From Candidatus Nitrosotenuis sp. (GTDB lineage: Archaea; Thermoproteota; Nitrososphaeria; Nitrososphaerales; Nitrosopumilaceae): 34,368 nucleotides of DNA. Numbering within the stretch: the first letter of the stretch is position 1; each line of letters opens with the position of its first letter. The position numbers were made by a program, and so were the translations under genes. Positions 5,056-34,336 of this stretch are shown here, piece after piece. Where the stretch lies: NCBI GenBank assembly GCA_004322465.1, contig SCVO01000067.1, positions 1-34,368 on the forward strand, written 5' to 3'. The notes beneath the pieces were generated by a model. It did not search any database. It was not told the origin of the DNA and saw only the letters and a program-made list of their open reading frames with translations.

Positions 5056-6060
5056 CTACAATGTAACTTCATATTTTTTCCATCGTCCGGAACCAATCTG
5101 TCTTACAAGGCCAAGCTCAACCATCCTCTGCATATAGTTTCGGTATGATCTGTCGGTGACAGTCTCTCCCATCTGCCGCCTGTACTCCTTGAAGAGTCTT
5201 CCTGAATCCATCGACTTGTTCCGCTTTAGGATTTCATAGATCGTCTTCTGGTGGTCGTTCAGCTTTCCCAACAGATACGACAGACGGTACTTTCTTGCAA
5301 ATCCCGCCGCCGCCCTTATGTGGTCGATGGTTATCGACTCGTGGCCCTTCGACTCCGCGTCGATTGCGGCGTTCTTGAGTATCTGTATGCTAGCCCTGGC
5401 ATCGCCTCCCGACGAGCTCGATATCTCTGCTATGAGTTCTTCAGATATGGCCTGTGGATGTAATCCGCCCTTAATCCTATCCCTCAGAATTTTGTCGATG
5501 TCAGTTCCGTCGTATGTCCCAAACTCTATCTCCTGTAGGTGGAGGCTGCTCCTTATCCTGTCGTCGATGTCGTTCGGCGAGTAGGGGTGATTCGATATCA
5601 GGACTACTGGGCAGGAGTTTCTGGAAAATGTGTACAGTATGTCATTGTCCTTCAGGTGGTCTGCCTCGTCGAGGCAGATTACCATCTTCTTGCCCGACTT
5701 CTCAAACCTTTTGATCAGCTCGCTGGTGGACTCCTTTCCGTGTATCATTGACCCCGTCTGCCTCAGCACCTCCTCCATGACCTTGTGGGCAGTCCTGTTG
5801 GACCAGCAGTTGACGTAGACGGACATGCCGCCGAAGTGCTCGCGCAGTACAGATCTGACGACGGTGGTCTTTCCAGCCCCAGGAGCGCCGAACACATAGA
5901 GGCTCTTTGCAGGCTTGCCCTGCTTGAGAGGCATCAGCGAGTCGACTATGTCCTCGACGTGCCGTTCGCGGCAGAGTATCTTTGCAGGCAGGAAGGCCTC
6001 GTGGAATGGACCTTCATCCAATATTATGGGCCTTCCCATTGTATCCTGATAAAACTGCAC
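5056..6060 (-). CDS. cdc6: Orc1/Cdc6-type replication initiator AAA+ ATPase
   Basis: Walker A GAPGAGKTT, Walker B VICLDEADHL, C-terminal winged helix. Confidence 0.9.
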   Translation of the reverse strand: MQFYQDTMGRPIILDEGPFHEAFLPAKILCRERHVEDIVDSLMPLKQGKPAKSLYVFGAPGAGKTTVVRSVLREHFGGMSVYVNCWSNRTAHKVMEEVLRQTGSMIHGKESTSELIKRFEKSGKKMVICLDEADHLKDNDILYTFSRNSCPVVLISNHPYSPNDIDDRIRSSLHLQEIEFGTYDGTDIDKILRDRIKGGLHPQAISEELIAEISSSSGGDARASIQILKNAAIDAESKGHESITIDHIRAAAGFARKYRLSYLLGKLNDHQKTIYEILKRNKSMDSGRLFKEYRRQMGETVTDRSYRNYMQRMVELGLVRQIGSGRWKKYEVTL

Positions 6061-7391: not shown

Positions 7392-8588
7392 TTATTCTAT
7401 AATTGAAAGCAGTTTTTCGAGCTTCTCCGGATTCTCCCGGATTTTTTGCAGGAGTGTTTCCATGCTGGATCTTTTCAGTGACATTTCCACCGCGTCGCTA
7501 TCGTTTAATGGAAAGGCGCACCTGTTGCAGTACATCGCGTCCCTGGAATTCTCGAACTCGCACCGCCTGCATCTCTTGGACAGTTCCACCTTCTGCTCCA
7601 TCTTCTGGATCTTGCTCTCGTCGACGGGATGGTTCATCAGCCTCATGGACTCGACCTGTATCTTCGGGATGATGGATGACGACAGGTGCTCGTAGACCCT
7701 TGCCATCTTGGACCCCGGCGTCCAGTGGTGCTTGTATTTCCTGTAGGATTCCGGCAGGCCCAGCTCGGAATCGTAGGAGCAGGACACGTGCTTCAGCAGG
7801 TGCGGCCAGACCCTCTTCTTGATCCCTGCCCTCCTGACGCATTTCTTGAAGGTCTGATAAGCGGAGGCGTATGACATCTGAATCGGTTTCTCCCTGTCCC
7901 GGAGGGGCCACAGGGGGGCAGTGGGGTCATCGCGAAACGGGTGTATGTTGAGCCACATCGCGAGCGTCTTCGCCGACCAAGTGAGTATAAGCGGAGCCTT
8001 GCCCGTCTTGCCGTCGGATTGGAGGACTGCGCCGATGTCGGTCAACTCCACCTCTCCGATCCTGACCGTGAGGATCTCGCCGATCCTGCAACCCGCGTCG
8101 AGGGTGCACTGGAAGAGCGCCCTGTCCCTGAGGTTCGTCGCCATCTCTGTTATCCTGACGCATTCGTCGTATGATATCAGGTCGCTTTCCGTCACCGATA
8201 TCGGCGGGACGCGCTTCATCTTTATCCACTTGACCTCGGGCGGGTAGTCCGAGCCTTGGAGCCCCCTCATCCACCTGTAGAACGTCTTGAGTATCTTCCA
8301 GTGCCTGTTTGCCGTGCTCGGGTGCTTGCATCTCCTGTCGACCTCGAAGACCAAGTTCTCGATGTCCTTGATGGTGGCCCTCTCGTACTTTTTGCCCAAA
8401 ATCGCGGACATGCTGTTGAGGCGGTTCAGCTCGTTGAACAGCGTGGCACTGGCCACCTGCCCGAAGCGGACTCGGTAGTACCTAGTCAAGATGTCCCGGT
8501 TGTGCCTGTCGGCGTTGATCTTGGCTATCTCTTTCTCTATCTTTTCCTTCAGCGGATAGATCAATTCTGCCCTGCTCATTACAGCCAC
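7392..8588 (-). CDS. Tyrosine recombinase/integrase with C-terminal zinc ribbon
   Basis: DAGCRIGEIL (box I Arg), PHLLKHVS (box II), HHWTPGSKMARVYEHL (Tyr), CRRCEFENSRDAMYCNRC zinc ribbon. Confidence 0.85.
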   Translation of the reverse strand: MAVMSRAELIYPLKEKIEKEIAKINADRHNRDILTRYYRVRFGQVASATLFNELNRLNSMSAILGKKYERATIKDIENLVFEVDRRCKHPSTANRHWKILKTFYRWMRGLQGSDYPPEVKWIKMKRVPPISVTESDLISYDECVRITEMATNLRDRALFQCTLDAGCRIGEILTVRIGEVELTDIGAVLQSDGKTGKAPLILTWSAKTLAMWLNIHPFRDDPTAPLWPLRDREKPIQMSYASAYQTFKKCVRRAGIKKRVWPHLLKHVSCSYDSELGLPESYRKYKHHWTPGSKMARVYEHLSSSIIPKIQVESMRLMNHPVDESKIQKMEQKVELSKRCRRCEFENSRDAMYCNRCAFPLNDSDAVEMSLKRSSMETLLQKIRENPEKLEKLLSIIE

Positions 8589-9355: not shown

Positions 9356-11128
9356 ATGAACTGGGTCTGTCTGTGCGGCAATTTCGTGCGCGACAGGCGG
9401 TTCTGCCCGAGGTGCAAGTACGTCAGATTCAGGCTCGACAACTCACCGATTCTCGACTATTGGGGCCTCAAAGTAGGTTCACTGTCAAACGGACTTCCAT
9501 TCAACTTTCCATTGCACCTCCTCTCAACACACACTCTTGTAGTTGGCCAGACTGGGACCGGAAAATCGAGATTTGCGATGAATCTCACAGTCAAAGCCGA
9601 GACATATCCTACAACTCACGGAATCAAGCTTCTGGTGGTTGACGTCGAGGGCGAGTGGAAAAACATCATCCCGAAGCTGAAAGGCAAGACGGAATATTTC
9701 GCAGTTGACAAGAACCTGAAAATCAACCCGTTCGATCTCGGCGACCCGGCACTGATCAGGGAGCTGATGAGGGAGACGGTCTTCAAAGGGATCGAAAAAG
9801 AATACATGGACTTGTCGGCACAGATGAACTTTGTCTTGCAGGAGACGATCAGCGAGAGCCATAGCATCGAGGAACTGATCCGAAACATCAAGTCATACGA
9901 CAGACAGAAGCTGACCGCGCTAGACAAGACAAAGACCGCATTGCTAGTCAGACTGGATCCTTTCATGCGCTCTCCGCTGAAGGAAATTTTTCTGTGCAAA
10001 AAATCAAATCCAGACTTTACAAATCTTGACGAGCAGAACATAGTAATCGACCTCCACGCACTTGACTCACTCGTGGCGTATGGCAGCGAGGTCAGGCTGA
10101 TCTACAACACCGTTACGACCTACTATCTTAGAAAGATGCTGAATCGTGGAACCTGCGACTGGGTCTCCAATCTGTTCATAGCAGACGAGGCACAGTTGCT
10201 GGTTCCCAAGATTCTCCATAAAATTGTCGTAACGGAATCTTGGCCGGCAACTGAATTTGCAACTAGGTTGAGAAAGCGCGGTTGCGGCCTTGTACTGATT
10301 ACACAATCTCCGTCCAACATTGAAAAGGACATCGTCAAGAACACCGGCACGAAGATAGCCTTTAGGCTTCAGCACCAGGAAGACATCAAGATCATAGCGG
10401 AATCCTCCGGATTTGCGGATCAGACGGAATACGAGTACCTTGCAGACAGAATTGTGAGGCTGCAAAGGAAGGAGGCGGTAGTCTCGACACTTGGATGCGA
10501 GCCTTTTCTCATGACTTCTGATGACTTTACGGTCTCGGGTTTTGACGCTGAGACAGAGGAGATTCAGGAGAACTTGGAAGAGGCGGTGGAAGATGATGAT
10601 GACAAGACTTTCCTTGAAAGCATAGTCAACGAGCCGTTCCTATCCGTCACGGAGAGGCGCGTAAAACTCGGGTGGGACGACAAAAAGTACACGAAGATTG
10701 TTGACGGGCTGTGCCAGAAAAAGAGGATAGAGATCGTCAGGGTGAGGCTTGGCAGGGGCTCGCCCAGGATACTGTACCAGAGACCAGGGACGGTGCCGAG
10801 CGTCAAGCACGAGTTCTATGTCGACTGGCTAGCGGAAAGTCTCACCGCAAAGGGATATCAAATAAGAAAAAACAAGGATGGTCCAGACATAGAAGTGCTG
10901 GATTGCAGCACGGTGATTGAAGTGGAGCTTGGGACATCAAACATTTCCGGCAACCTGAAAAGGAACATCCAGAAATTCGACAGAGTGATTGTCTGCTCTG
11001 ACGATTCCAAGCTCATTGAAGCCCTCTCTGCCAAAACGAAGGGTAAACAGATTTTGTTTCTGCCAATCCAAAAAGTTCCAGCCGCGTTTGAAAAGATGCG
11101 AGCTGGAACGGATTTGGTGAATACATGA
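9356..11128 (+). CDS. HerA/VirB4-like ATPase with N-terminal zinc ribbon, wHTH and C-terminal nuclease-like domain
   Basis: CLCGN...FCPRC, Walker A GQTGTGKS, Walker B LFIADEAQLL, C-terminal GPDIEVLDCSTVIEVELGTS (PD-(D/E)xK-like pattern, ExE rather than ExK). Confidence 0.85.
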   Translation: MNWVCLCGNFVRDRRFCPRCKYVRFRLDNSPILDYWGLKVGSLSNGLPFNFPLHLLSTHTLVVGQTGTGKSRFAMNLTVKAETYPTTHGIKLLVVDVEGEWKNIIPKLKGKTEYFAVDKNLKINPFDLGDPALIRELMRETVFKGIEKEYMDLSAQMNFVLQETISESHSIEELIRNIKSYDRQKLTALDKTKTALLVRLDPFMRSPLKEIFLCKKSNPDFTNLDEQNIVIDLHALDSLVAYGSEVRLIYNTVTTYYLRKMLNRGTCDWVSNLFIADEAQLLVPKILHKIVVTESWPATEFATRLRKRGCGLVLITQSPSNIEKDIVKNTGTKIAFRLQHQEDIKIIAESSGFADQTEYEYLADRIVRLQRKEAVVSTLGCEPFLMTSDDFTVSGFDAETEEIQENLEEAVEDDDDKTFLESIVNEPFLSVTERRVKLGWDDKKYTKIVDGLCQKKRIEIVRVRLGRGSPRILYQRPGTVPSVKHEFYVDWLAESLTAKGYQIRKNKDGPDIEVLDCSTVIEVELGTSNISGNLKRNIQKFDRVIVCSDDSKLIEALSAKTKGKQILFLPIQKVPAAFEKMRAGTDLVNT

Positions 11129-11868: not shown

Positions 11869-12621
11869 TTATTTTTTGTTATCAATGCCAAATATCTTCA
11901 GGGCCGTTTGTCCTTTTTCAGTAATTGACACTTCGCTTCTTCTTCCACTGGATTCGATTGTTACAAAATTCCAAATTTTTTCCATCGGGTCTAGTATTGC
12001 ACGAAGCTGACTATGCTTTGCTGCGTCAGTCAAACGAGTTACACTTTCGTCTTTGATCTTGATTATTTCTCCGTCTTCAAGTTTTTCTATAATGTGTGAC
12101 TTTCTCATTTTTCCACCAGCTTCATCTAACAGAGATAAAACCAGCATCTCCTCTTTGTTTGGCTTTCTTATGCCGTATGTAGGAAGAATCTCAGAGTCCA
12201 AGACCTGTTCGGTTGGCAGTTCCATGTGCTTTGTTTCTGGATATCGAACGGGGGCGTAATACGGTGTGGCATTCCATAGCATTGATGAGAGCATACCTGC
12301 TATGGCAGTGATCTTGGTTCCAGTAGACACGTTGACGTACATGTGGTTTCCCTTTTCGCTCAAGATTATCTCTCGGAATTTCTTTATGCAATCGTAAAGA
12401 TCCCAGATGTCGATAAAGACCTCCTCGACTTTGATGTGTTTGTACTTCTGGGATAGCTCTTTTTTGATCCTACTGTAGTATGTGGATGCGTTGTCGTCGC
12501 GTTCATAAGTAATGAGGTAAACCTTATCTGCCTGCATACGTATCAGTGGTTCTGTGACCCGGAAAATCTCGTATCCAACAGGCGCAATGTGTACCCTCAG
12601 ATTTGCTGACATACCTAACAT
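11869..12621 (-). CDS. CARF-domain transcriptional regulator with C-terminal wHTH (DUF6293/HFX_2341-like)
   Basis: N-terminal Rossmann-like domain with the MYVNVSTGTKITAIAGMLSSML signature, C-terminal wHTH (MLVLSLLDEAGGKMRKSHIIEKL...). Confidence 0.75.
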   Translation of the reverse strand: MLGMSANLRVHIAPVGYEIFRVTEPLIRMQADKVYLITYERDDNASTYYSRIKKELSQKYKHIKVEEVFIDIWDLYDCIKKFREIILSEKGNHMYVNVSTGTKITAIAGMLSSMLWNATPYYAPVRYPETKHMELPTEQVLDSEILPTYGIRKPNKEEMLVLSLLDEAGGKMRKSHIIEKLEDGEIIKIKDESVTRLTDAAKHSQLRAILDPMEKIWNFVTIESSGRRSEVSITEKGQTALKIFGIDNKK

Positions 12622-12702
12622 TCTTTAGCAAGTTAACTTTATTAACTTTATTTTGGTAAATAGACTTAAGTATTCTAGGCACGAATAAACTTCAGTGATT
12701 AA
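12622..12702. promoter_or_regulatory. Divergent promoter region between the CARF regulator and the Ubl operon; AAGTTAACTT palindrome (12630-12639) followed by ATTAACTTTA repeat
   Basis: Direct reading. Confidence 0.45.
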
Positions 12703-12945
12703 ATGAGCGACGAAAAAACAAAACCGCATGAGAGGGTAATCCATGTCAACAAGAAAGAATTCAAGGTTACCGCAGACAGCCTCACCGGCAGACAAATACT
12801 AGAACTGGCAGGATACGACGTAAACCAATACGACCTCTTCCTAGTGCATGGCCAAAACAGTCAGAAGATAGAGCCAGACCAGAAAGTCGACATCCAAAAC
12901 GGAATGCACTTCAATGCAATTCTGAAGAGTGTGCCATATGGATGA
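12703..12945 (+). CDS. Ubiquitin-like protein (prokaryotic multi-ubiquitin family-like), terminating in ...VPYG
   Basis: HVNKKEFKVTADSLTGRQILELAGYDVNQYDLFLVHGQNSQKIEPDQKVDIQNGMHFNAIL, beta-grasp-like; first gene of a tight operon with E2-like and E1 genes. Confidence 0.8.
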   Translation: MSDEKTKPHERVIHVNKKEFKVTADSLTGRQILELAGYDVNQYDLFLVHGQNSQKIEPDQKVDIQNGMHFNAILKSVPYG

Positions 12946-13331
12946 TACCGGACGAGCTGGTGCAGGACATGCAGGTCCTAAAGGAACAAGGTCTTGAATA
13001 CACGATAACGGAACATGAATCCAAAGTCTATATCGTATTCAAGGACTATCCCCTACCTGTCGGTCTATTCAACATGGAGAAGACTGACTTGATGATTTTT
13101 ACTACACCGCATTATCCCAATGCAGGTTTTGACATGTTCTGGGTCGATGAGAAACTGCTCTTGAAGAACAATGCACCGCCAAAAGCTGGTGACGTGATCG
13201 AACCCCATCTGCAGCGGAATTGGCGTCGATTCAGCTATCACCCGTACAATGGAAAGCCTTGGAACCCGGGGGAGGACAGCGTGATCAGTTTCATGTCATA
13301 TGTTGACCAGAGGTTAAGGAAGGGAGATTAG
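12942..13331 (+). CDS. Prok-E2_E-like (UBC-fold) protein without any cysteine
   Basis: MIFTTPHYPNAGFDMFWVDEKLLL...WRRFSYHPYNGKPWNPGEDSVISFMSYVDQRL; ATGA overlap with Ubl. Confidence 0.75.
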   Translation: MIPDELVQDMQVLKEQGLEYTITEHESKVYIVFKDYPLPVGLFNMEKTDLMIFTTPHYPNAGFDMFWVDEKLLLKNNAPPKAGDVIEPHLQRNWRRFSYHPYNGKPWNPGEDSVISFMSYVDQRLRKGD

Positions 13332-13332
13332 A

Positions 13333-14673
13333 ATGTGGACAGTCGTATTCCCAAAAAAGCTGTATGACGATTTGAACAAGTTTCTGTTCAGTACTAAATA
13401 TGAAAACGGATGTTTTCTTCTGGCAAATTCCTACAAAGCATCTGACAAACCTGTAATGATCATAACAGAAGTGATCAAACCCGATGATGAATCGTGGAAT
13501 CGCAGCGGAGAGCATTCGCTTGAGCCGAGCTCGTCATTCATCAACAAATGCGTCGTCATTGCAGACTCGAAAAATCTCAGCCCAGTGTTTGTACACACGC
13601 ACCCGCACTCGCTACACCCAGCAGGATTTAGCATGATCGACGAGAAGTCAAACAAGAGAATGTTTGCCAATCTCTCTCAGATACTGCCTGACAGGCCGCT
13701 TGCGAGCTTTGTGTTCAGCAGACATGGAATGTGTGGAGTGGTGTTCAACAGTGGAAAAATTCAGAATGTTTCAAGAATAAAGATTTCAGGCAAAGTACTT
13801 GATGGATATGCTGGCGTGGGATTTGATGGAAAGAAGGATTTAGTCGACACCAAATTTGACAGGCAGGTACGTGCACTAGGAGAGCAAAACCAGAAGAAGA
13901 TTCAAGAAATGACCATGACGCTAGTTGGCTCCGGTGGAACTGGCTCTCCATTGGCAGTACAACTTGCCCGCATGGGCGTAAAGAGACTAAGGATTGTGGA
14001 TAAGGACAACATTGATGCAACAAATCTGCCAAGAATCTACGGAGCCAAGGATACCGATGTTGGCAAGAGCAAAGTGGAAGTTCTGAAAAGACACATCGAA
14101 TGTTTCTCTAAAACAAAGGTAGAGGCAATACAGGCGGATGTTACAAAAGACGGTGTGACTTCTAAATTGATAGACTCTGACGTGATCTTTTCCTGCACAG
14201 ATAACCTCACAAGCAGGTCAATCTTGAACGACATTTCAATACAATATCTGATTCCATTGATTGACATAGGTTGTAGAATTCACAAGGACAAGCACGGCGC
14301 AATTGATCAGGCCGTGATGAAGGTACAGGTGGTGACCCCGGATACTGCATGCCTCTGGTGCAGCGGTACACTTGATGGGAAACTGATAATGCAAGAATCA
14401 TTGTCGGATGAGGAAAAGAAAAATCTCGCCAAGGAGGGATATTATGAGAACGTAGACAAACAGCCAAGCATAATTTCAATGACAACCATGGCCGCAAGTA
14501 TGGGGGTAAACAAATTGCTTGCTCTCCTCGGTATTATGGGGGCAGACTATGACTCTCAAACTCAGATAGAGATGAAGGATGAGTTCATGATCAGCTCATC
14601 TCCTGAAATCAAGGACAACTGCGTTTGCCAGAAAAGGAAGGGCTTGGCAGATAGGAGGAGGGTAACGGCTTAG
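13333..14673 (+). CDS. JAB/JAMM metalloprotease fused to E1 (ThiF-like) ubiquitin-activating domain
   Basis: JAMM HPHSLHPAGFSMID (HxHx7SxxD) with upstream Glu in YENGCF; E1 Rossmann GSGGTGSP, RIVDKDNIDATNLPR, FSCTDN, ACLWC. Confidence 0.9.
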   Translation: MWTVVFPKKLYDDLNKFLFSTKYENGCFLLANSYKASDKPVMIITEVIKPDDESWNRSGEHSLEPSSSFINKCVVIADSKNLSPVFVHTHPHSLHPAGFSMIDEKSNKRMFANLSQILPDRPLASFVFSRHGMCGVVFNSGKIQNVSRIKISGKVLDGYAGVGFDGKKDLVDTKFDRQVRALGEQNQKKIQEMTMTLVGSGGTGSPLAVQLARMGVKRLRIVDKDNIDATNLPRIYGAKDTDVGKSKVEVLKRHIECFSKTKVEAIQADVTKDGVTSKLIDSDVIFSCTDNLTSRSILNDISIQYLIPLIDIGCRIHKDKHGAIDQAVMKVQVVTPDTACLWCSGTLDGKLIMQESLSDEEKKNLAKEGYYENVDKQPSIISMTTMAASMGVNKLLALLGIMGADYDSQTQIEMKDEFMISSSPEIKDNCVCQKRKGLADRRRVTA

Positions 14674-15507
14674 TTGTCAGCAAAACAACATGACAAAAAC
14701 GGTCCTGATAACATACTGCCAGAATTGGCGATTAGCGGCTGTTGGATAGAACCACACTCTAACATTACATATCTTGAAAGAAGTGAGTTCAAGGTAGAGC
14801 TACAAAACAACTCCAGGAAGGAAATTGAGATCGTAAAAATGGGATGCCAATTCCAGACAGAAGACGGCGTCCACCCAAAAGTATTCTCGCTGGAACCAAT
14901 GGTTTCAATAAAGCCGCACAACTTGGAATTTTTCAGAGTCCCATTCATAGTAGATCTTTCTTTAAGGCAAGGCACCAACTACGCAATTTTGGAAATAGTG
15001 TATCGGTACAAGGGAGAAATCGATTTGATTTCTGTATCGTTCAGCTATCCGGAAACACGATACCTCATGATCAATTCCAAACATTCTCCTGAAAAGCACT
15101 TTTTCATAAGTCACAAGGATCCACAACAGGAAGTGCTAGCAACCAGGGTGGACCACAACCTGATAAAAATTGGCTACATGGGATATGTAGCAGAAAGGGA
15201 CAAGAAACCCGGAGTTGACCTATGGCGAGAGAAAATATTGCCAAAAATCGACAGCTGTGTAGCCTTGGTTGTGCTATGGACAAAAGATGCGGCCGACAAT
15301 CCGAACCAGATTCTACGCGAGGTCAGACGCGCGAAAAGTAAAAAGAAGAAAATAGTTGTACTTGCAGAAAATGGCGTTTCCATACATGAGATATTCAAGG
15401 GCACAAAAGAGTACATCAGCGCAGACGGCAAGATCGGCGAATCCGACCTAATACAGTTAGTAGAGCACATAGAGGAGACATACAGAACCGGAGGCTACAG
15501 ATCATGA
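14674..15507 (+). CDS. Beta-sandwich + TIR-like domain protein
   Basis: TTG start directly after the E1 stop; C-terminal KHFFISHKDPQQEVLATRVDHNLIKIGYMGYVA...DSCVALVVLWTKDAADNPNQILREVRRAKSKKKKIVVLAENG. Confidence 0.7.
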   Translation: MSAKQHDKNGPDNILPELAISGCWIEPHSNITYLERSEFKVELQNNSRKEIEIVKMGCQFQTEDGVHPKVFSLEPMVSIKPHNLEFFRVPFIVDLSLRQGTNYAILEIVYRYKGEIDLISVSFSYPETRYLMINSKHSPEKHFFISHKDPQQEVLATRVDHNLIKIGYMGYVAERDKKPGVDLWREKILPKIDSCVALVVLWTKDAADNPNQILREVRRAKSKKKKIVVLAENGVSIHEIFKGTKEYISADGKIGESDLIQLVEHIEETYRTGGYRS

Positions 15508-15574
15508 TGTCCCAAAATGATATTTTTAAGCGCACCAAAATCTGTTGTGAGACATCTTATTTTTATCACAAAAA

Positions 15575-16501
15575 ATGCAACTATATCCTATGACAATACA
15601 AGCGTTCATCAGCTACAGTTTCAATGATACTGACCTCATGAACAAGCTGAAGAAAAGTCTAGAATCTCACGGAGCTAAATGTTATGTCGCCAAGCACGAC
15701 GAAGATTATGGGGGCTCACTACCAGATAAGTTGACATCTGCAATAGATGAAAGTCCGGTGGTAATAGCCATATTGACAAAATACGGAAGTTCGTCCTCCA
15801 CGGTAAATCAAGAAATAGGATATGCTAAGAAGGCAAGGAAGAGAATCATTCCACTTTTAGAAGAAGGAGTTCCAATACCTGTCTTCCTACAAGGTATCGA
15901 GCACGCAAGATTTACACCGGATAATGTAGACAGAATATTCAAGAAAATATCCAAGTTTGTCACTACCAAGATGCCGCTCAGTACAGAATCAGATACAGTG
16001 AGTCTGAAAGACATAGTAGAACAAGAGGGAGTTGATCTTCCAACAGATAATGGATTCACTAGTCTTGTTTTAGGCATGGGGCGAAGATATCTGATGAAGA
16101 AATATGGGAGGCTAGATGTTCCATTGAACAAAGAAATAGCCATGCTTCTCATCACAGGATTGGTTCTGATTGCTCCCGTTTTTGGGATACTTTTTTGGAG
16201 CATTAACGCACATTTTGTTATTGAACCATATCTTCTGTATGTTGGAGTAGGCCTTGCCATTCCAGGGATTCTTGCTATTTCTTCAATTGAGATAATCCGA
16301 AAGCGCAAATGCCATGAATGCGGAATAAATTTTGGAATAGAGATGACCAATTCCAAATTGGTTGAGAGAAAAGAAGTTAACAGGACTGAATTTTATAGAA
16401 AAATACAGGAAACACAAAGGAACACGTACACATGCAAATTCTGCAATAACACATTCACAAAAAACGAACATCACGAATATAGCATTCCATTAGAAAGTTA
16501 G
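15575..16501 (+). CDS. TIR domain - two transmembrane helices - zinc ribbon protein
   Basis: QAFISYSFNDTDLMNKLKKSLESHGAKCYVAKHDEDYGGSLPDKLTSAIDESPVVIAILTKYGSSSSTVNQEIGYA; TM segments ~aa 188-240; CHECG...CKFC. Likely start is the internal ATG at 15590. Confidence 0.85.
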   Translation: MQLYPMTIQAFISYSFNDTDLMNKLKKSLESHGAKCYVAKHDEDYGGSLPDKLTSAIDESPVVIAILTKYGSSSSTVNQEIGYAKKARKRIIPLLEEGVPIPVFLQGIEHARFTPDNVDRIFKKISKFVTTKMPLSTESDTVSLKDIVEQEGVDLPTDNGFTSLVLGMGRRYLMKKYGRLDVPLNKEIAMLLITGLVLIAPVFGILFWSINAHFVIEPYLLYVGVGLAIPGILAISSIEIIRKRKCHECGINFGIEMTNSKLVERKEVNRTEFYRKIQETQRNTYTCKFCNNTFTKNEHHEYSIPLES

Positions 16502-17161: not shown

Positions 17162-18244
17162 GTGAGAACAATGGACGAAATCACGCATAAAATACTGGAC
17201 ATGCTGGCTAGGAACTTGGGCAGGCCCATGTCTATACACGAACTTACCGGCAAAATGGAGCAGACGTACGGCAGTGCTTACTATGCCAACATACACGAAA
17301 AAATCCAAGAAATGGCCCAGGATAGCATAATCACAATTTCAAAGTCTGGCAAGTCTTCCATAATATCTCCATACTTTGAGAACTATCTGCTAATCGACTT
17401 GCTTGCAGAAACGGAGCTGATTAGAAAACAAGACTTTCTGAAGGGGAGACAGGAGATGCAGATGTTGATGATGGAGATAGACACCTTCTTGCACAACATG
17501 CCTTTCGTCAAGTCAATCTCTCTGATGAATCCGGAAAGAAACGCGAAACTGAACAAAGCGGAGATCATGTTCCATCTGAAATCTCCAAACCGAAAATCCA
17601 CAGAAGAGACAAAGATCGAGATCAGTGCCATAATGGCCAGTCTCCAAAGGATGCATAACATCAGAATAGACTATCTGATTTTAGACGACGAGACATTTCT
17701 TGACCTGTTGAAGTCAAACGAGAACAACCCTATCCGGGAGATGCTGCACAACAAGATCGCGGTCCTGTATCCACAGGGATTCTGGATGTCGATTAGAGGA
17801 GAGATTTTGAGAGGCACCACGATAATAGCTGAAGAAAACGAGACGCACCCTGCAAAGATAAGCGAAGAGAATCTAGTCTTCAATCTCGCAAGGTTCGGAT
17901 ACACGGAGTTCGGGCCGAAACTAGAACAGGGCAGACCTATCTGCATGGAATACATAATATCTGCGATAATGTTCCACAAAGACGCAAGAAGAATGGATGC
18001 GATTCCAATAATTCTTGCAAAGAATTCTAAAAAAACAAACTACGGCTTGCTGCTCTTTTTGGCGCGAAAATATGACTTCGAAGGGAAGATGCTAGGTATA
18101 CTCAAAGCGCTCAGAAACCTTATCGCACACGGGATGGCTAACATTGACGAGCCTATAAGGCTGCTCGAGGCCATGAAAATAGAAGAGATCAAGGCAAACA
18201 CTAAGAGCATGAAGGAGAAACTGAGGCTGTACAATGTCACTTGA
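17162..18244 (+). CDS. wHTH + nucleotidyltransferase-like/HEPN-like protein (toxin-antitoxin type)
   Basis: N-terminal wHTH; middle domain with ...IAVLYPQGFWMSIRGE; C-terminal helical domain with Rx4H motif ALRNLIAHGMAN. Confidence 0.6.
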   Translation: MRTMDEITHKILDMLARNLGRPMSIHELTGKMEQTYGSAYYANIHEKIQEMAQDSIITISKSGKSSIISPYFENYLLIDLLAETELIRKQDFLKGRQEMQMLMMEIDTFLHNMPFVKSISLMNPERNAKLNKAEIMFHLKSPNRKSTEETKIEISAIMASLQRMHNIRIDYLILDDETFLDLLKSNENNPIREMLHNKIAVLYPQGFWMSIRGEILRGTTIIAEENETHPAKISEENLVFNLARFGYTEFGPKLEQGRPICMEYIISAIMFHKDARRMDAIPIILAKNSKKTNYGLLLFLARKYDFEGKMLGILKALRNLIAHGMANIDEPIRLLEAMKIEEIKANTKSMKEKLRLYNVT

Positions 18245-18746
18245 CAACACAAAACTGCTCGATTTCCTGGGAGAAGTTGACAAGGAATTGAGCCGGAAAA
18301 TCGTGGTGGTAGCGGTAGGCGGGACTGCAATGACTCTTGTCAAGGCAAAACCATCCACCATCGATGTAGACTTCACAATACCTGTAGAATTCTATGACGA
18401 GTTCGAAAGAGCAAAGAAGATGGTAGATCCTGGATTTAGAGTAGATTTGTTCCATGGCGGCATGGTGTTCATCACAGCACTGCCAGATGACTATCTGAAG
18501 AAAAGTAGACCGATAAGGACCAGACTGAAAAACATACAGCTAAGGGCGCTGGATCCTGTAGATATCATCATTACAAAAATTGCTAGACTTGATGAGAGAG
18601 ATGAACAGGACATAGAATCTTGCATTGAGAAATTTAAGATTAAAAAGAGTCAGATTGTAAAACGCGCAAAAGACATCGGATATTCTGGTAATGATGAAGT
18701 TTTCAAAGGTAACCTACAGATTATGTTGACAAAGTTTTTTAGATGA
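18234..18746 (+). CDS. Minimal nucleotidyltransferase (MNT/DUF6036/AbiEii-like)
   Basis: VAVGGTAMTLVKAKPSTIDVDF (GG...DxD) motif; 11-bp overlap with the upstream partner. Confidence 0.7.
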   Translation: MSLDNTKLLDFLGEVDKELSRKIVVVAVGGTAMTLVKAKPSTIDVDFTIPVEFYDEFERAKKMVDPGFRVDLFHGGMVFITALPDDYLKKSRPIRTRLKNIQLRALDPVDIIITKIARLDERDEQDIESCIEKFKIKKSQIVKRAKDIGYSGNDEVFKGNLQIMLTKFFR

Positions 18747-18800: not shown

Positions 18801-21278
18801 TTATCTTGCTAGAACACTTATGGTGCTTTCGTTCAATCCATTCTTTTGAATTTCGACGGTATGTCCGTGGAAAATCTCTCTGATGGTATCGACGTGACTG
18901 ATTAGAATCACGCAGTCAAATTCCTTCGTCAGATTCCTTATGACGTTCACGGCCTCCCTGACTCCGTCCTCGTCCAGGTTGCCGAAGTCGCCCTCGTCGA
19001 TGAAGAGCGTCTGCATTATGGCAAACGTGTGCTCGTCCGTCTGTGGCATCTTGCTGAGTATCCTGGAGATTGCAACTCGCAGTGCCATATTGATCCTTGT
19101 CTTCTGACCTCCGGAATAGTAGTGTATGGGCCTGACTTCTCCGTTCATAGTGGCAGCGATGTTCAGGGTATCCTCGTCGATGTTAAGCGCCGTTATGTTG
19201 TTGTTGGATAACTCATTGATGATGTCGGTTCCCTCTTTCTCGATGAACGGCCTGAGTCTCCGCAGGATGTTCTCCGGTATGTTCTTGAATATATCACGCA
19301 ACTCCTCTAGCGTAATTATTTCCTCTTTGAGTCGTTCTATTTGCTCCAGGTTTTTTGCAAACTTTCGTTCCTTGTCTTCCAAGTCTTCCAGTTTGTCTCT
19401 GGACTGTCTTTCTCTTTCAGACTCGGTGGCGAGAGCTTTGCCGTTATCATTTAACTCGTGTTGTGATTCATCGAGTGATTGTTTTGCATCGGTGTACTTC
19501 TTTTCCAACTTGGAAAGTTGCTTTAGTCTGGTTTCCAAGGATCTATTTTCGTTGACAAGGTCAGAAAGCTTTCCGAGAGAAGTCTCCAATTCTTGTCTTA
19601 CTTTGGGCAGTCTGTCTAATTCGGTTTTTGCATTGGCATAGTTTTCTGCGACTTTGTCTTTTCTGAGTTGTTTAATTTTTGCATCAAGGCGACCGTATTC
19701 AATTGGGTTAAACCCAAGACTGTCGCGCTTCTGAGACAATGATTTGGAGTCTGCTTTCGTCTTGTCGATTTGCTCTTTTATTGAATCCTTTCTTTTAATC
19801 AGGCTCGACAGTCTGTTTTGTTCCCTTGTTACTTGATCTATTTTAGACGCATCTTTTTCTAACTGTCTTTGAAGGCTGTCAAGACGTTTGACCGTTTCTG
19901 ACACCGTTTTCAATCTTCGTAAAATCGAAACTTGCTCTTTCCCTAACTTGGTCTTTTTGGATACAAGCGCAGATATCTCGTCGTCATAATGCTTTGTGAC
20001 GTGTTGCTGGTCTGTTATCTTCTGCAAGCATACTGGACATTCGTCCTTACCTTTCACCTGGTCTCTTCTCGCCTTCAAGCTTTCAATCGATTCTTCAATC
20101 TGTTTGATTTGACCGCGTATGCTGTTTGACCTATCTTTGAGTCCTTTTTCTATGGCGGTAGCAGCATTCAGAGATTTCTCTGTTTTGGTCAACTTTGATG
20201 GTGAAGGTATCTGTTTTCGAAGTTTCAAAATTGCTGATTTGGTATCTTTGATTTGATCTACAATGTCTGATAGACTGTCACGCTTATCTGCAAGTGTAGT
20301 ATCGTGCTTGAGAATTTCGGTAGATATTTTATCATATTCTGACTTTGTGGGCTGAATCTTGGATATTTTTTCGTCGAGAGTTGTGTAAGTCACATAGGAG
20401 CTTTTGATGGAATTAAACCGTTTCTGGATTGAGAGTAATCTGTTAAGATCATTTCGATTATCCTCGATGTCTTTCTTGGCAGCGTCAATCTGTCCTCTTG
20501 CGGTATCTGCTTTCTCTTTCTGTCGGATGTATTCATTGTGGTTATCTTCTAGTGTTTTTATGTTCGTCTTCTTCGTCTCAACTATTTTCTCGAGTTTGAC
20601 CTTCTTTTCTTTCAGCGTCTTCACTTGACTGGAAACTTGTTCGATTTCTTCTTTGATATCTGGAATCTTTTTGATGTCTGCTTGGAGAATTTTATCTGCC
20701 TCTTCTGTAGCATGTATGTCTGATTCTTTGCGTTGGATTTTTTCTTTGGCCAATTTCTCATATGCAGAATATTTGTCGAGTCCAAACAGCTCGGTGAATG
20801 CTTTCTTTCGCGGCCCGGGATCCAGATCTGTAAGTGCACTCATCTCGCCCTGTAGGACGACCGTTGATTTCCTGAAGCCCTCCCAATCGAGGCCAATTGC
20901 CCTGTTTCTCACATATGCGTAGACATGTCTTCCAACCGCCTTGCTCTCTCCATCTTCCAACAATTCGCCCCCGGTATCACTGTGGGTTATTTCGCGAGTT
21001 ACTACGTAATTGTGACCGTGATTTTCAAACTCGACTCGGATTATGGCCTTGTCTGATTCATGGTTGACCAAGTCATTTATGCTTAGGAAGCCAGAAGTTG
21101 CCCTCCCTGAGGTTCTCAAAGTCCTGCCATAGAGACAAACGCACAATGCATCGAGAATCGAGGTCTTCCCAGAACCGTTATCTCCTGCTATCAGTGTGAC
21201 TTGATTTTGCGGGAACTCGACTTCCAGACTTCCCTTGAATCGCATGAAGCCTTTGAGGACGATTCTCTTAAGTTTCAG
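18801..21278 (-). CDS. rad50: Rad50/SbcC-like ATPase
   Basis: Walker A GDNGSGKTS, long coiled coil, zinc hook CPVC, signature YSGGQKTR, Walker B LFIDEGDFGNLDE. Start extended to CTG at 21278 to restore N-terminal LKLKRIVLKGFMRF. Confidence 0.85.
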   Translation of the reverse strand: MKLKRIVLKGFMRFKGSLEVEFPQNQVTLIAGDNGSGKTSILDALCVCLYGRTLRTSGRATSGFLSINDLVNHESDKAIIRVEFENHGHNYVVTREITHSDTGGELLEDGESKAVGRHVYAYVRNRAIGLDWEGFRKSTVVLQGEMSALTDLDPGPRKKAFTELFGLDKYSAYEKLAKEKIQRKESDIHATEEADKILQADIKKIPDIKEEIEQVSSQVKTLKEKKVKLEKIVETKKTNIKTLEDNHNEYIRQKEKADTARGQIDAAKKDIEDNRNDLNRLLSIQKRFNSIKSSYVTYTTLDEKISKIQPTKSEYDKISTEILKHDTTLADKRDSLSDIVDQIKDTKSAILKLRKQIPSPSKLTKTEKSLNAATAIEKGLKDRSNSIRGQIKQIEESIESLKARRDQVKGKDECPVCLQKITDQQHVTKHYDDEISALVSKKTKLGKEQVSILRRLKTVSETVKRLDSLQRQLEKDASKIDQVTREQNRLSSLIKRKDSIKEQIDKTKADSKSLSQKRDSLGFNPIEYGRLDAKIKQLRKDKVAENYANAKTELDRLPKVRQELETSLGKLSDLVNENRSLETRLKQLSKLEKKYTDAKQSLDESQHELNDNGKALATESERERQSRDKLEDLEDKERKFAKNLEQIERLKEEIITLEELRDIFKNIPENILRRLRPFIEKEGTDIINELSNNNITALNIDEDTLNIAATMNGEVRPIHYYSGGQKTRINMALRVAISRILSKMPQTDEHTFAIMQTLFIDEGDFGNLDEDGVREAVNVIRNLTKEFDCVILISHVDTIREIFHGHTVEIQKNGLNESTISVLAR

Positions 21279-22443
21279 AAGGCATCATCTCCCTGGCTTC
21301 GACAATTATCTCGTTGGCTAACTTGTTCAGAAGCGTAATTTTTCCCTTGTACTGTTCTTTGTCTTTGATGTAAAGTTCTACCTCCTTGGATGGCGGAAGT
21401 ATGTAATCGCCACTAAGCGTCTTTGACTCGGGTAGTGTAACGACAGTCCTGGGCTGTAGTTTGTATTCGAATACCTTGGCCTCTTCTAGTGCTGCTTTGA
21501 TTCGCTTCCAGTCGATCAGCCTGTTCTCGTCAATATCGATATTCTCGAGCTTGATTCTCACAAGACAGTCTGCTAAAGCATCTTTTTGCTGAGTGATTTT
21601 GTCGACAACCAACTTGGTGATTTCTATCGCAGAAAGCTTAGAACAGTCTGCATCGACAAGTGTGACCATTTTCCTTGTGAGCAGTTTGATGGGAGATACT
21701 TTCACATCTTCATCGAACTCGACAATCAGGGCATACTTGTCATCGCGCTCTTCTCCAAATTCGTATCTCTCAGACGAACCAGGGTAGTATATTGCCATTG
21801 TATCATGTGGAATTTTTTGTAACTTGTGAATGTGTCCCAGAGCTACATAATCAAACTTGGAAGGAATTTGATTCACATCTACATAATCTCCGATGAATGT
21901 CTCAAAAGCTACTTCAGAACTCGTCACAGCCTGGCCCAAGGGTATGTGAGTCACGAGTATCCTTCTATTGGATTTCGAATTCTGCATTGCCTTTACGAGT
22001 AGGGGCTCAAACAGATTCCTTATCTCATCGAAGTTCTGGGGAGCTGGGACGCACACAAAATCATAGCCGTTAAGATGAACTGTTGTTGGCTCGAGAACTA
22101 CCAAAACTCCATCTATCTCGCCAAGCATTACCAGAGGATTGAGGGTCGTTGCTATCTTCGGTGTCTCGTGGTTGCCCCCTACGATTAACGTGGTTATTCC
22201 ACGCTTGCTCACCTGTTTTAACTTCCGAATGACTTCCAAGGTGTAGCGTGGATGAGGATTTACTTTCGTAAAGAAATCGCCGGCAATAAGCAAGACGTCG
22301 ACTTTCTCTTTGATTGCGATATCGGCTATGTTCTTGAAAGAATTCAGAAAGTCTACGCCACGAGCGTTTAGGCCAGTCTGGTAATCGATTCTTTGGTAGT
22401 CTGTCTCGCCTATGTGGTTATCAGCAGTATGTAAGACTCTCAT
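21268..22443 (-). CDS. mre11: Mre11/SbcD-like nuclease
   Basis: LHTADNHIGE, LLIAGDFF, VGGNHE, ALGHIHKLQ phosphoesterase motifs; operon with rad50. Confidence 0.9.
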   Translation of the reverse strand: MRVLHTADNHIGETDYQRIDYQTGLNARGVDFLNSFKNIADIAIKEKVDVLLIAGDFFTKVNPHPRYTLEVIRKLKQVSKRGITTLIVGGNHETPKIATTLNPLVMLGEIDGVLVVLEPTTVHLNGYDFVCVPAPQNFDEIRNLFEPLLVKAMQNSKSNRRILVTHIPLGQAVTSSEVAFETFIGDYVDVNQIPSKFDYVALGHIHKLQKIPHDTMAIYYPGSSERYEFGEERDDKYALIVEFDEDVKVSPIKLLTRKMVTLVDADCSKLSAIEITKLVVDKITQQKDALADCLVRIKLENIDIDENRLIDWKRIKAALEEAKVFEYKLQPRTVVTLPESKTLSGDYILPPSKEVELYIKDKEQYKGKITLLNKLANEIIVEAREMMPSET

Positions 22444-32958: not shown

Positions 32959-33098
32959 CGCGCTGCAAGGAATGCGGAACCGATGTGGAGTTGATTCGAC
33001 AGGCAATCAGTGAGATTGTTGAGGAAGTAAGGAAAGCAAGGTCTCAAGCTTCCTCTCAATCGAAGAGAACCTCGCCTCAACCTCGTCGTCCGTCCTAA
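32955..33098 (+). CDS. Possible 47-aa zinc-knuckle protein with CTG start
   Basis: CTGA overlap: LTRCKECGTDVELIRQAISEIVEEVRKARSQ...; antisense to the integrase 3' end. Confidence 0.3.
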   Translation: MTRCKECGTDVELIRQAISEIVEEVRKARSQASSQSKRTSPQPRRPS

Positions 33099-34215
33099 TC
33101 GCAGTAGCGATGTCGAGGGGCTTTCCGCAATGTACGCACTTTGTGGAATCGAAGGAGTTTGGTTGTTTGCATATGTTGCAAATCTGAGGAAGCGTCGCAT
33201 CGACCGCCTTTTCTTTTTCGATGCCGTAGTGCTCAAAGAGTGCCCTATCAACGTCCGCGTTTACTAGGTGCACGTATCTTGCGGGCATCTTTGAGGACGG
33301 CGACCATCCGTGCCTTTTTCTCATTTGCGCCTCTGTCAAAAAATTCGCCGTCATTGTAGCCTCCGAGTGTCTGAAGAGGTTCAGGTAGACGCGCTTTCCA
33401 AGGTTTGCTTTTGCAACAACTTCTAGAATTCTTTTTCTTGCAGCGGCATAAGTCAGCGGTTTTCCATAATTTGTATTTCCTAGCATTATCCACAACGGCG
33501 CATCTGGGTCGTCTTTGTTGGGATGCTTGTCCAAGTAGCTTGCAAGGTCCGGCGTACTCCTTATGAGCCTCACCGGCCTCGGTCCAGTCTTTCCGTCCAC
33601 ATGCAGCACAGCACCGAACTTGTCAAACTTTACATGTTTGATTCTGAGATTCAATATCTCGCCAGGTCTCGTACCTGCCTCTATGTGGCAGTGAACAAAC
33701 GCCCTGTCTCTTAGGTTCTCCCCGCACGCCCTCAGCAACCTTTCCGTGTCGTCTTCGGATATCAGCTCCTCTCTGACAATCCTGTCCTTGACTCGTTTTG
33801 GTTTGATCCACTTTGTTTCAGGCGGATCGCCTACCTCGGCAAAGTTTCGTGTCCCGAGTTTTAGCCACCTGTAGAATCGTTTTAGAATCTTCTTGTGGTC
33901 TACGGTCGTGTTCGTCTCCTGGCCGTCCTCGCTGAACCTCCGATTGACGCTGAAAATTAGGTTCTCTATGTCTTCCTTGGTGGTGTCTGCCCAGTCCTTT
34001 TTCAGCAGCCTGGTGAGGCTGAGTATCATGGAGATGTTTTTTGATCTAGTGGAATCTGCCAGAGATTCGTTGACTAGGACCCTGTCGTATTTTCTGATTA
34101 ATTCTACATTCTTTTCTGAAAACTCCCTTTCGATTATTCTGTACATATTTTGGATTATCGCCTTGTAATCATGTATGATGATCTCGCGGTTTTTTTGACG
34201 TGATAGCCTTTGCAA
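33007..34215 (-). CDS. Tyrosine recombinase/integrase with C-terminal zinc ribbon
   Basis: EAGTRPGEIL, LNLFRHSEATM, HGWSPSSKMPARYVHL, CNICKQPNSFDSTKCVHCGKPL; next to a tRNA gene. Confidence 0.88.
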   Translation of the reverse strand: MQRLSRQKNREIIIHDYKAIIQNMYRIIEREFSEKNVELIRKYDRVLVNESLADSTRSKNISMILSLTRLLKKDWADTTKEDIENLIFSVNRRFSEDGQETNTTVDHKKILKRFYRWLKLGTRNFAEVGDPPETKWIKPKRVKDRIVREELISEDDTERLLRACGENLRDRAFVHCHIEAGTRPGEILNLRIKHVKFDKFGAVLHVDGKTGPRPVRLIRSTPDLASYLDKHPNKDDPDAPLWIMLGNTNYGKPLTYAAARKRILEVVAKANLGKRVYLNLFRHSEATMTANFLTEAQMRKRHGWSPSSKMPARYVHLVNADVDRALFEHYGIEKEKAVDATLPQICNICKQPNSFDSTKCVHCGKPLDIATAIRTDDEVEARFSSIERKLETLLSLLPQQSH

Positions 34216-34260
34216 AGTGTATGACTATACGCTGATGGGGGTATTAAACAAGAAGGAGAA

Positions 34261-34336
34261 TGCTCCCGCCGGGATTTGAACCCGGGATCACTGCCTTGAG
34301 AGGGCAGTATGCTTAACCGGACTACACCACAGGAGC
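34261..34336 (-). tRNA. tRNA-Glu (anticodon CTC)
   Basis: Reverse complement GCTCCTGTGGTGTAGTCCGGTTAAGCATACTGCCCTCTCAAGGCAGTGATCCCGGGTTCAAATCCCGGCGGGAGCA: acceptor 7 bp (one G-T), anticodon stem CTGCC/GGCAG, loop CTCTCAA, T-arm CCGGG-TTCAAAT-CCCGG. Confidence 0.93.

What the first reader, a model, noticed from the sequence alone, without database searches (positions are those of the whole stretch)
11869..16501. Candidate system: CARF-regulated Ubl / Cys-less E2 / JAB-E1 fusion operon with two TIR proteins
Four genes are packed head to tail (ATGA overlap, 1-nt gap, 0-nt gap): ubiquitin-like protein, E2-fold protein, JAB-E1 fusion and beta-sandwich/TIR protein. A second TIR gene (TIR-2TM-Zn ribbon) follows 67 bp later, and a divergent CARF-wHTH gene shares the 81-bp promoter region. 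Prokaryotic Ubl/E1/E2/JAB operons are known (Prok-E2_E, Prok-JAB, Multi_ubiq families; Bil and type II CBASS-like antiviral conjugation). TIR domains are known NAD-consuming effectors, and CARF domains sense nucleotide second messengers. Having all three in one archaeal locus suggests a conjugation-gated TIR defence, possibly with a TIR-derived nucleotide sensed by CARF. The function is inference; the gene order is seen directly.
Basis: partly seen in the sequence, partly recalled or inferred. Interest (0 to 1): 0.88.

Follow-up and report, generated by a model that had tools for sequence, protein, structure and literature searches.

The report
Archaeal ubiquitin-like (Bub) operon with TIR
An ammonia-oxidising archaeon carries a version of the bacterial 'Bub' ubiquitin-like protein-tagging operon to which a TIR-domain gene and its own nucleotide-sensor-type regulator are attached; the combination recurs in related species, which suggests an inducible antiviral or stress system and gives a first testable clue to what Bub operons do.

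Summary
In detail: coordinates, order, overlaps and domains are as described. The core, Ubl (12703-12945), Cys-free E2 (12942-13331) and JAB-E1 (13333-14673), is not Bil- or CBASS-like. It is an archaeal member of the Bub / 'type 6e' family: the best solved homologues are Citrobacter BubA, BubB and BubCD. In the 250 species genomes searched of this AmoA-bearing archaeal family, all five full-length beta-rich-TIR genes sit directly behind a JAB-E1 gene. The four CARF-wHTH proteins closest to this one are exactly those divergent from a Ubl-E2-E1 operon. A 20-bp tandem repeat lies in that promoter in three genomes (degenerate in a fourth) and occurs once in this genome. Haloarchaeal plasmids also pair a CARF-wHTH gene with Bub. 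So the TIR1 and CARF linkages are real and conserved, though several Bub loci in the family lack both; 22 bacterial plasmid loci have neither beside the operon. The second TIR gene (15575-16501) recurs nowhere and is probably an unlinked neighbour. No Cas10 was found in the carriers, so the CARF ligand is unknown. Defence function, NADase activity and conjugation-gating are inference. Verdict: new variant of a known kind.

The parts
11869..12621 (-). CARF-wHTH regulator (HFX_2341_N + DUF6293_C), apparently dedicated divergent regulator
   Evidence: Pfam; the four closest homologues in 250 genomes (434-488 bits) are all divergent from a Ubl-E2-E1 operon; 50-77% identity among the Bub-linked copies versus 35% to the other CARF gene of this genome
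12622..12702 (.). shared divergent promoter region, 81 bp
12633..12652 (+). conserved tandem repeat TTAACTTTATTAACTTTATT, candidate CARF-wHTH operator
   Evidence: 0/0/1/5 mismatches in G000/G398/G564/G453, all in the same divergent intergenic region; only one copy in the whole genome, none other within 3 mismatches
12703..12945 (+). single-domain ubiquitin-like protein (BubA type), ends ...VPYG with C-terminal Gly exposed
   Evidence: Multi_ubiq; beta-grasp model pLDDT 82.5; PDB top matches multi-ubiquitin/BubA; C-terminal PYG in 4/4 CARF-linked copies
12942..13331 (+). Cys-free E2 (BubB type); conserved Ser98, His100, Trp107, Asp112
   Evidence: Prok-E2_E; Citrobacter BubB 1e-15 to 3e-26; no conserved Cys column in 16 homologues, Ser98 in 16/16
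13333..14673 (+). JAB (JAMM) peptidase fused to E1 adenylating domain (BubCD type)
   Evidence: ThiF; Citrobacter BubCD 2.5e-92 over both domains; JAMM and adenylation residues invariant
14674..15507 (+). TIR1: beta-rich N-terminal domain + C-terminal TIR; fourth gene of the operon; Glu216 at the usual TIR catalytic position
   Evidence: TIR_2; SPARTA TIR 5e-4; Glu216 invariant in 4 full-length homologues; present only directly behind JAB-E1, 5 of 5
15575..16501 (+). TIR2: TIR + hydrophobic segments + Zn-ribbon-like tail; adjacent, probably not part of the conserved system
   Evidence: TIR_2 9e-16, ThsB_TIR weak; no equivalent in other Bub loci

Best explanation
This is an archaeal Bub-type ubiquitin-like conjugation operon carrying a conserved TIR protein as fourth gene and controlled by its own CARF-wHTH regulator. 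Shown by sequence: gene content, order, recurrence, intact adenylation, JAMM and TIR residues, absence of a conserved catalytic Cys in E2 and E1, and a conserved repeat in the divergent promoter. Inferred: the CARF-wHTH protein sits on the repeat and keeps the operon low until an unknown nucleotide signal of infection or damage binds it. The JAB-E1 then adenylates the Ubl, and the Cys-free E2 (probably through Ser98/His100) passes it to a target; the JAB half removes it again. TIR1 reads that step through its beta-rich domain, and its TIR domain then consumes NAD+ or makes a nucleotide signal.
For: Core = BubA/BubB/BubCD by PDB profile and fold search. Catalytic residues. TIR1 directly behind JAB-E1 in five operons of four genomes and nowhere else in 250 genomes, although Bub itself is in only 8 real carriers. 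CARF divergent from the operon in four genomes, plus haloarchaeal plasmids. Operator-like repeat. A CARF-wHTH of the same Pfam family, HFX_2341, represses cas genes in Haloferax (PMC11434293). Bacterial Bub operons also carry a local regulator in that slot (CapW, CapH+CapP, CapK+CapS; PMC13373217). Neighbourhoods are defence- or mobile-element-like: Shedu and type I R-M beside the G564 copy, integrases and Cdc6 in this window.
Against: No experiment: no conjugate, NADase activity, CARF ligand or defence phenotype is shown. Bub operons have not been shown to protect against phage (PMC13373217). TIR1 and CARF are each absent from some Bub loci of the same family (L103, L016, L105 lack both; L104 lacks CARF). 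G498 keeps a related CARF gene away from its Bub operon. No Cas10 was found to supply a cyclic oligoadenylate. The TIR1 domain scores low against known families, and the N-terminal fold of TIR1 is unresolved. The linkage rests on few genomes, most of them fragmented assemblies.
Confidence: 0.5

Rival explanations
1. Same operon, but a stress or housekeeping protein-modification system: the TIR domain is a scaffold or interaction module, not an NADase, and CARF senses a metabolic nucleotide such as c-di-AMP.
For: Bub has no shown antiphage role and may mediate stress responses (PMC13373217); HFX_2341 is described as a global regulator with c-di-AMP suggested as a possible ligand (PMC11434293); TIR similarity is weak.
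Against: Patchy distribution (8 real carriers of 250 genomes), defence and mobile-element neighbours, catalytic-position Glu conserved in TIR1.
Confidence: 0.25
2. TIR1 is the substrate rather than the reader: the Bub machinery attaches the Ubl to TIR1 and so primes or restrains it, as type II CBASS Cap2 does to its CD-NTase.
For: Strict pairing of TIR1 with JAB-E1, often translationally coupled (-4 or 0 nt); known logic of Cap2-cGAS conjugation (PMC10097602, listed, and own knowledge).
Against: No sequence feature singles out a conjugation site; not testable here.
Confidence: 0.15
3. Coincidental neighbours inside a defence island: independent CARF, Bub and TIR genes.
For: The window carries several integrase genes and defence-like genes; TIR2 is indeed unlinked elsewhere.
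Against: TIR1 is behind JAB-E1 in 5 of 5 cases across three genera, and CARF is divergent in the four closest cases; overlapping reading frames.
Confidence: 0.05

Closest known systems
Bub (bacterial ubiquitination-like) operons, BubA-BubB-BubCD; operon type 6e of Iyer et al. 2006 (PMC1779556)
   Same: Ubl (Multi_ubiq), Cys-free Prok-E2_E, JAB-E1 fusion, same order; best solved homologues are Citrobacter BubA/B/CD
   Different: Archaeal; TIR protein in the place where DUF6527 / the 'Y' metal-binding protein usually follows; CARF-wHTH regulator instead of CapW, CapH+CapP or CapK+CapS; single Ubl domain
HFX_2341 / DUF6293 CARF-wHTH regulators and Csa3
   Same: HFX_2341_N plus DUF6293_C architecture; VNVSTGTK-type CARF loop conserved; HFX_2341 represses cas genes (PMC11434293)
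   Different: Linked to and apparently dedicated to a Ubl operon, not cas genes; no Cas10 found in carriers
TIR defence effectors: Thoeris ThsB, SPARTA TIR-APAZ, PADLOC PDC-S35 candidates
   Same: TIR domain with Glu at the catalytic position; SPARTA TIR is the best solved match to the TIR1 profile; PDC-S35 candidate proteins match the TIR part of TIR1b and have a similar length
   Different: N-terminal beta-rich domain matches no known family; no ThsA or pAgo partner; partner is a Ubl conjugation cassette
Bil (ISG15-like) and type II CBASS
   Same: Prokaryotic Ubl/E1/E2/JAB logic
   Different: Bil and Cap2 use Cys-bearing E2 parts, and JAB is separate from E1 (own knowledge); here E2 has no conserved Cys and JAB is fused to E1; no CD-NTase

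Membership tests
Bub / type 6e conjugation operon | Ubl of the Multi_ubiq/BubA family | tested here: met
   (3e-12), fold match to BubA/multi-ubiquitin structures
Bub / type 6e conjugation operon | E2-fold protein without catalytic Cys (Prok-E2_E/BubB) | tested here: met
Bub / type 6e conjugation operon | JAB fused N-terminally to E1 with intact JAMM and adenylation residues | tested here: met
Bub / type 6e conjugation operon | Gene order Ubl-E2-(JAB-E1) | tested here: met
Bub / type 6e conjugation operon | DUF6527 / metal-binding protein Y downstream (common, not universal) | tested here: not met
   TIR1 occupies the place; DUF6527 annotated in 12 of 22 bacterial plasmid loci read, so it is not a defining feature that excludes membership
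Bub / type 6e conjugation operon | Protein conjugation activity | not testable with these tools
   needs biochemistry
HFX_2341-type CARF-wHTH regulator | HFX_2341_N plus DUF6293_C domains above Pfam cut-offs | tested here: met
   (111 and 57 bits)
HFX_2341-type CARF-wHTH regulator | Ligand binding and repression of adjacent operon | not testable with these tools
   only a conserved promoter repeat was seen
Thoeris | ThsA (SIR2/SLOG or other effector) next to ThsB TIR | tested here: not met
   no ThsA-like gene in the PADLOC and Pfam scans of the neighbouring genes
Bil (ISG15-like) | Separate JAB and E1 genes and Cys-bearing E2 | tested here: not met
   JAB-E1 fused, E2 without Cys
Type II CBASS | CD-NTase with Cap2 E1-E2 fusion | tested here: not met
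   no CD-NTase among the scanned genes of the locus; E2 is a separate gene
TIR NADase effector | TIR fold with catalytic Glu | tested here: inconclusive
   TIR_2 profile met and Glu216 invariant; activity untested, model poor

The most novel reading that the evidence does not exclude
A closed circuit: a cysteine-free ubiquitin-like cascade switches a TIR enzyme by tagging, the TIR product (or another infection nucleotide) is sensed by the dedicated CARF-wHTH protein, and this releases its own operon. That would be a ubiquitin-like conjugation that directly controls a TIR effector in archaea.
Probability: 0.1. Interest if true: 0.92.

Novelty: new variant of a known kind. Interest (0 to 1): 0.64.

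Why it matters
The purpose of Bub operons is unknown: they have not been shown to protect against phage (PMC13373217). A conserved TIR partner and a CARF regulator tie Bub to two known immune modules and give concrete tests (NAD+ loss, Ubl-TIR1 conjugate, operator release by a nucleotide). It also places an operon-encoded Ubl/E2/E1/JAB set in ammonia-oxidising archaea; a 2010 survey found no archaeal E2-like proteins (PMC2948915).

Tried and rejected
The search for related loci with the JAB-E1 protein in genome contigs gave only short ThiF relatives from Selenomonadaceae; alignments A1 and A2 were too diverse for pattern scans; viral-contig scans found no relative of TIR1, JAB-E1 or E2; the phage collection has only ThiF-part matches. 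TIR1 has no plasmid match. G230 and G407 (GC-rich) E2 hits were rejected as false. The G398 Cas10-like hit is in the riboflavin gene cluster and below cut-off, so rejected as Cas10. Bil/CBASS identity and a system role for TIR2 were considered and rejected. The main papers on Bub (Ye 2026, Gong 2025) are not held. A Ser- or oxyester-type E2 mechanism is recalled from them, not read, so it is marked as inference. No direct repeat of the tRNA-Glu 3' end was found in the window, so the mobile-element limits are not set.
Full report
Observation. All six genes are at the stated places with the stated spacing. Pfam gives HFX_2341_N + DUF6293_C for the divergent gene, Multi_ubiq for 12703-12945, Prok-E2_E for 12942-13331, ThiF for 13333-14673 and TIR_2 for both 14674-15507 and 15575-16501. 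The JAB half of the E1 protein shows no Pfam hit here, but the family profile aligns over both domains with Citrobacter BubCD (2.5e-92). The JAMM residues H88-x-H90-x(9)-S100-x2-D103 are kept in 17 of 17 homologues, with Glu24 in 15. The Ubl gives a confident beta-grasp model from its single sequence (pLDDT 82.5). Its nine best PDB matches are all bacterial multi-ubiquitin/BubA proteins.

What the core is. By profile search against solved structures, E2 = BubB (2.8e-26 with alignment A1; 1.3e-15 with A4), JAB-E1 = BubCD and Ubl = BubA / multi-ubiquitin. The gene order is that of Iyer et al. 2006 type 6e: poly-Ubl, 'inactive' E2/RWD-like domain without Cys, JAB-E1 fusion, metal-binding protein Y (PMC1779556). 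In 16 E2 homologues no Cys column is conserved, while Ser98 is kept in 16/16, His100 and Trp107 in 15/16 and Asp112 in 14/16; in 17 E1 homologues the adenylation residues are invariant and no Cys in the transfer region is conserved. Citrobacter BubB has the same Ser/His/Trp/Asp pattern. A Cys-independent transfer, perhaps through Ser98, is therefore likely but inferred. The Ubl ends in ...PYG in all four CARF-linked copies, so it probably needs no C-terminal trimming; the JAB half is then more likely a deconjugase than a maturation enzyme (inference).

Is the linkage real? A first sample of 398 genomes of the phylum found Prok-E2_E in this genome and one other of the same family (G029), plus one false hit; the G029 locus lacks TIR and CARF. 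A family-wide CARF survey then exposed more loci. An E2 profile over 250 genomes of the family found nine genomes with hits, one of them a GC-rich false hit. Loci: window; G398 C26 (L058: CARF divergent, Ubl-E2-JABE1-TIR1, and at the contig start the C-terminus of a second JAB-E1 followed 6 nt later by a second beta-rich-TIR gene, gap); G564 (L102: CARF divergent, Ubl-E2-JABE1-TIR1 running off the contig); G453 (L059: CARF divergent, Ubl-E2 and the start of JAB-E1, then the contig ends); G418 (L104: Ubl-E2-JABE1-TIR1, no CARF); G498 (L103: Ubl-E2-JABE1 only); G029 (L016) and G398 C5 (L105): diverged Ubl-E2-JABE1 followed by small membrane-protein genes; G245 (L107): E2 and E1 without JAB. Thus TIR1 follows JAB-E1 in five operons and is absent behind three complete ones.

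The converse test is the strong one. A profile of full-length TIR1 over the same 250 genomes finds exactly those five genes (one of them cut by a contig end) and no other full-length copy; the remaining hits cover essentially the TIR domain only. For CARF, the four best matches of 250 genomes (488, 483, 478, 434 bits) are the four divergent from a Ubl-E2-E1 operon. The fifth (350 bits) is in G498, away from its Bub operon and beside a ParE-like toxin gene. The general CARF family is common here (53 of 121 genomes; 109 of 250), so a CARF-wHTH gene as such is not rare, but this subfamily is Bub-linked. Haloarchaeal plasmids (Halorarius, and by equal spacing Halorubrum CBA1229 and Haloarcula SYNS111, nearly identical copies) also have a DUF6293 gene divergent from an E2/JAB-E1 pair, a second archaeal phylum; three other haloarchaeal loci lack it.

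Bacterial comparison. In 22 bacterial plasmid Bub loci read out, none has a CARF gene and none a TIR gene beside the operon (one weak TIR-like hit lies about 4 kb away in L081). Twelve have an annotated DUF6527 gene downstream, and several have an HTH plus ImmA/IrrE pair upstream. PMC13373217 reports CapW, CapH+CapP or CapK+CapS as local regulators of Bub operons and states that Bub has not been shown to protect against phage. The CARF-wHTH gene therefore looks like an archaeal occupant of the regulator slot, and TIR1 like an occupant of the accessory slot.

Regulation. The divergent intergenic regions of G000, G398 and G564 share TTAACTTTATTAACTTTATT with 0, 0 and 1 mismatches; G453 has a degenerate form with 5. 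In 2000 simulated 100-bp regions of the same composition only one reached 3 mismatches. The genome has this one copy and none other within 3 mismatches, so the proposed regulator should have one target. The family prototype HFX_2341 represses cas genes, and its authors suggest a nucleotide signal (PMC11434293). Cas10 was not found in the carriers; the only sub-threshold hit lies in the riboflavin gene cluster. The ligand source is therefore open.

TIR proteins. TIR1 keeps Glu216, Trp184 and Ser146-His147 in all four full-length copies; its TIR profile is nearest to SPARTA TIRs among solved structures (5e-4). The first ~140 residues are conserved among the copies but match no Pfam family, and the single-sequence model is unusable. 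TIR2 has a better TIR score, hydrophobic segments and a Cys-pair tail, but no counterpart in any other Bub locus, and a 67-bp gap; I treat it as a neighbour.

Setting. The genome belongs to an archaeal family whose members have archaeal AmoA (9 of 10 tested; not found in this 92%-complete assembly), so they are ammonia oxidisers. The window holds three tyrosine-recombinase genes, a Cdc6 gene and an integrase next to tRNA-Glu, typical of integrated elements. The G564 copy sits beside Shedu and type I restriction genes.

Judgement. Identity as a Bub variant with conserved TIR1 and CARF partners: about 0.95. Dedicated CARF control: about 0.75. Immune or stress-triggered role with TIR1 as effector: about 0.5. 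Closed TIR-to-CARF signal loop: about 0.1.

Noticed in passing
window 33007-34336: Tyrosine recombinase gene directly beside tRNA-Glu(CTC), with two more recombinase genes (7392-8588 and a fragment 2179-2415) and an Orc1/Cdc6 gene (5056-6060): the window looks like integrated mobile element(s). No repeat of the tRNA end was found inside the window.
   Followed up: partly
window 18801-22443: Mre11/Rad50-like pair; the ATPase matches PADLOC LmuB at 8e-25.
   Followed up: no
window 9356-11128: HerA-like ATPase with C-terminal extra domain, PADLOC mad8 2e-17.
   Followed up: no
window 17162-18746: Two-gene unit: 360-aa protein with weak HTH similarity and a DUF6036 nucleotidyltransferase, possibly toxin-antitoxin like.
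   Followed up: no
L058 20-967: Second, diverged JAB-E1 end followed by a beta-rich-TIR gene in the same genome and contig as the first operon; with L105 this genome has three Bub loci.
   Followed up: partly
L148 6644-7849: CARF-wHTH of the Bub-linked subfamily standing alone beside a divergent ParE-like toxin gene.
   Followed up: partly
L016 and L105: Diverged archaeal Bub operons followed by small membrane-protein genes instead of TIR; the L016 copy lies near UvrD-like and type I R-M-like genes.
   Followed up: partly
L019 7724-8587: Abditibacteriota plasmid Bub operon followed by a weakly trypsin-like gene, another possible alternative accessory gene.
   Followed up: no
L102 4695-11454: Shedu (SduA) and type I R-M genes next to the CARF-Bub-TIR operon of G564.
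   Followed up: yes
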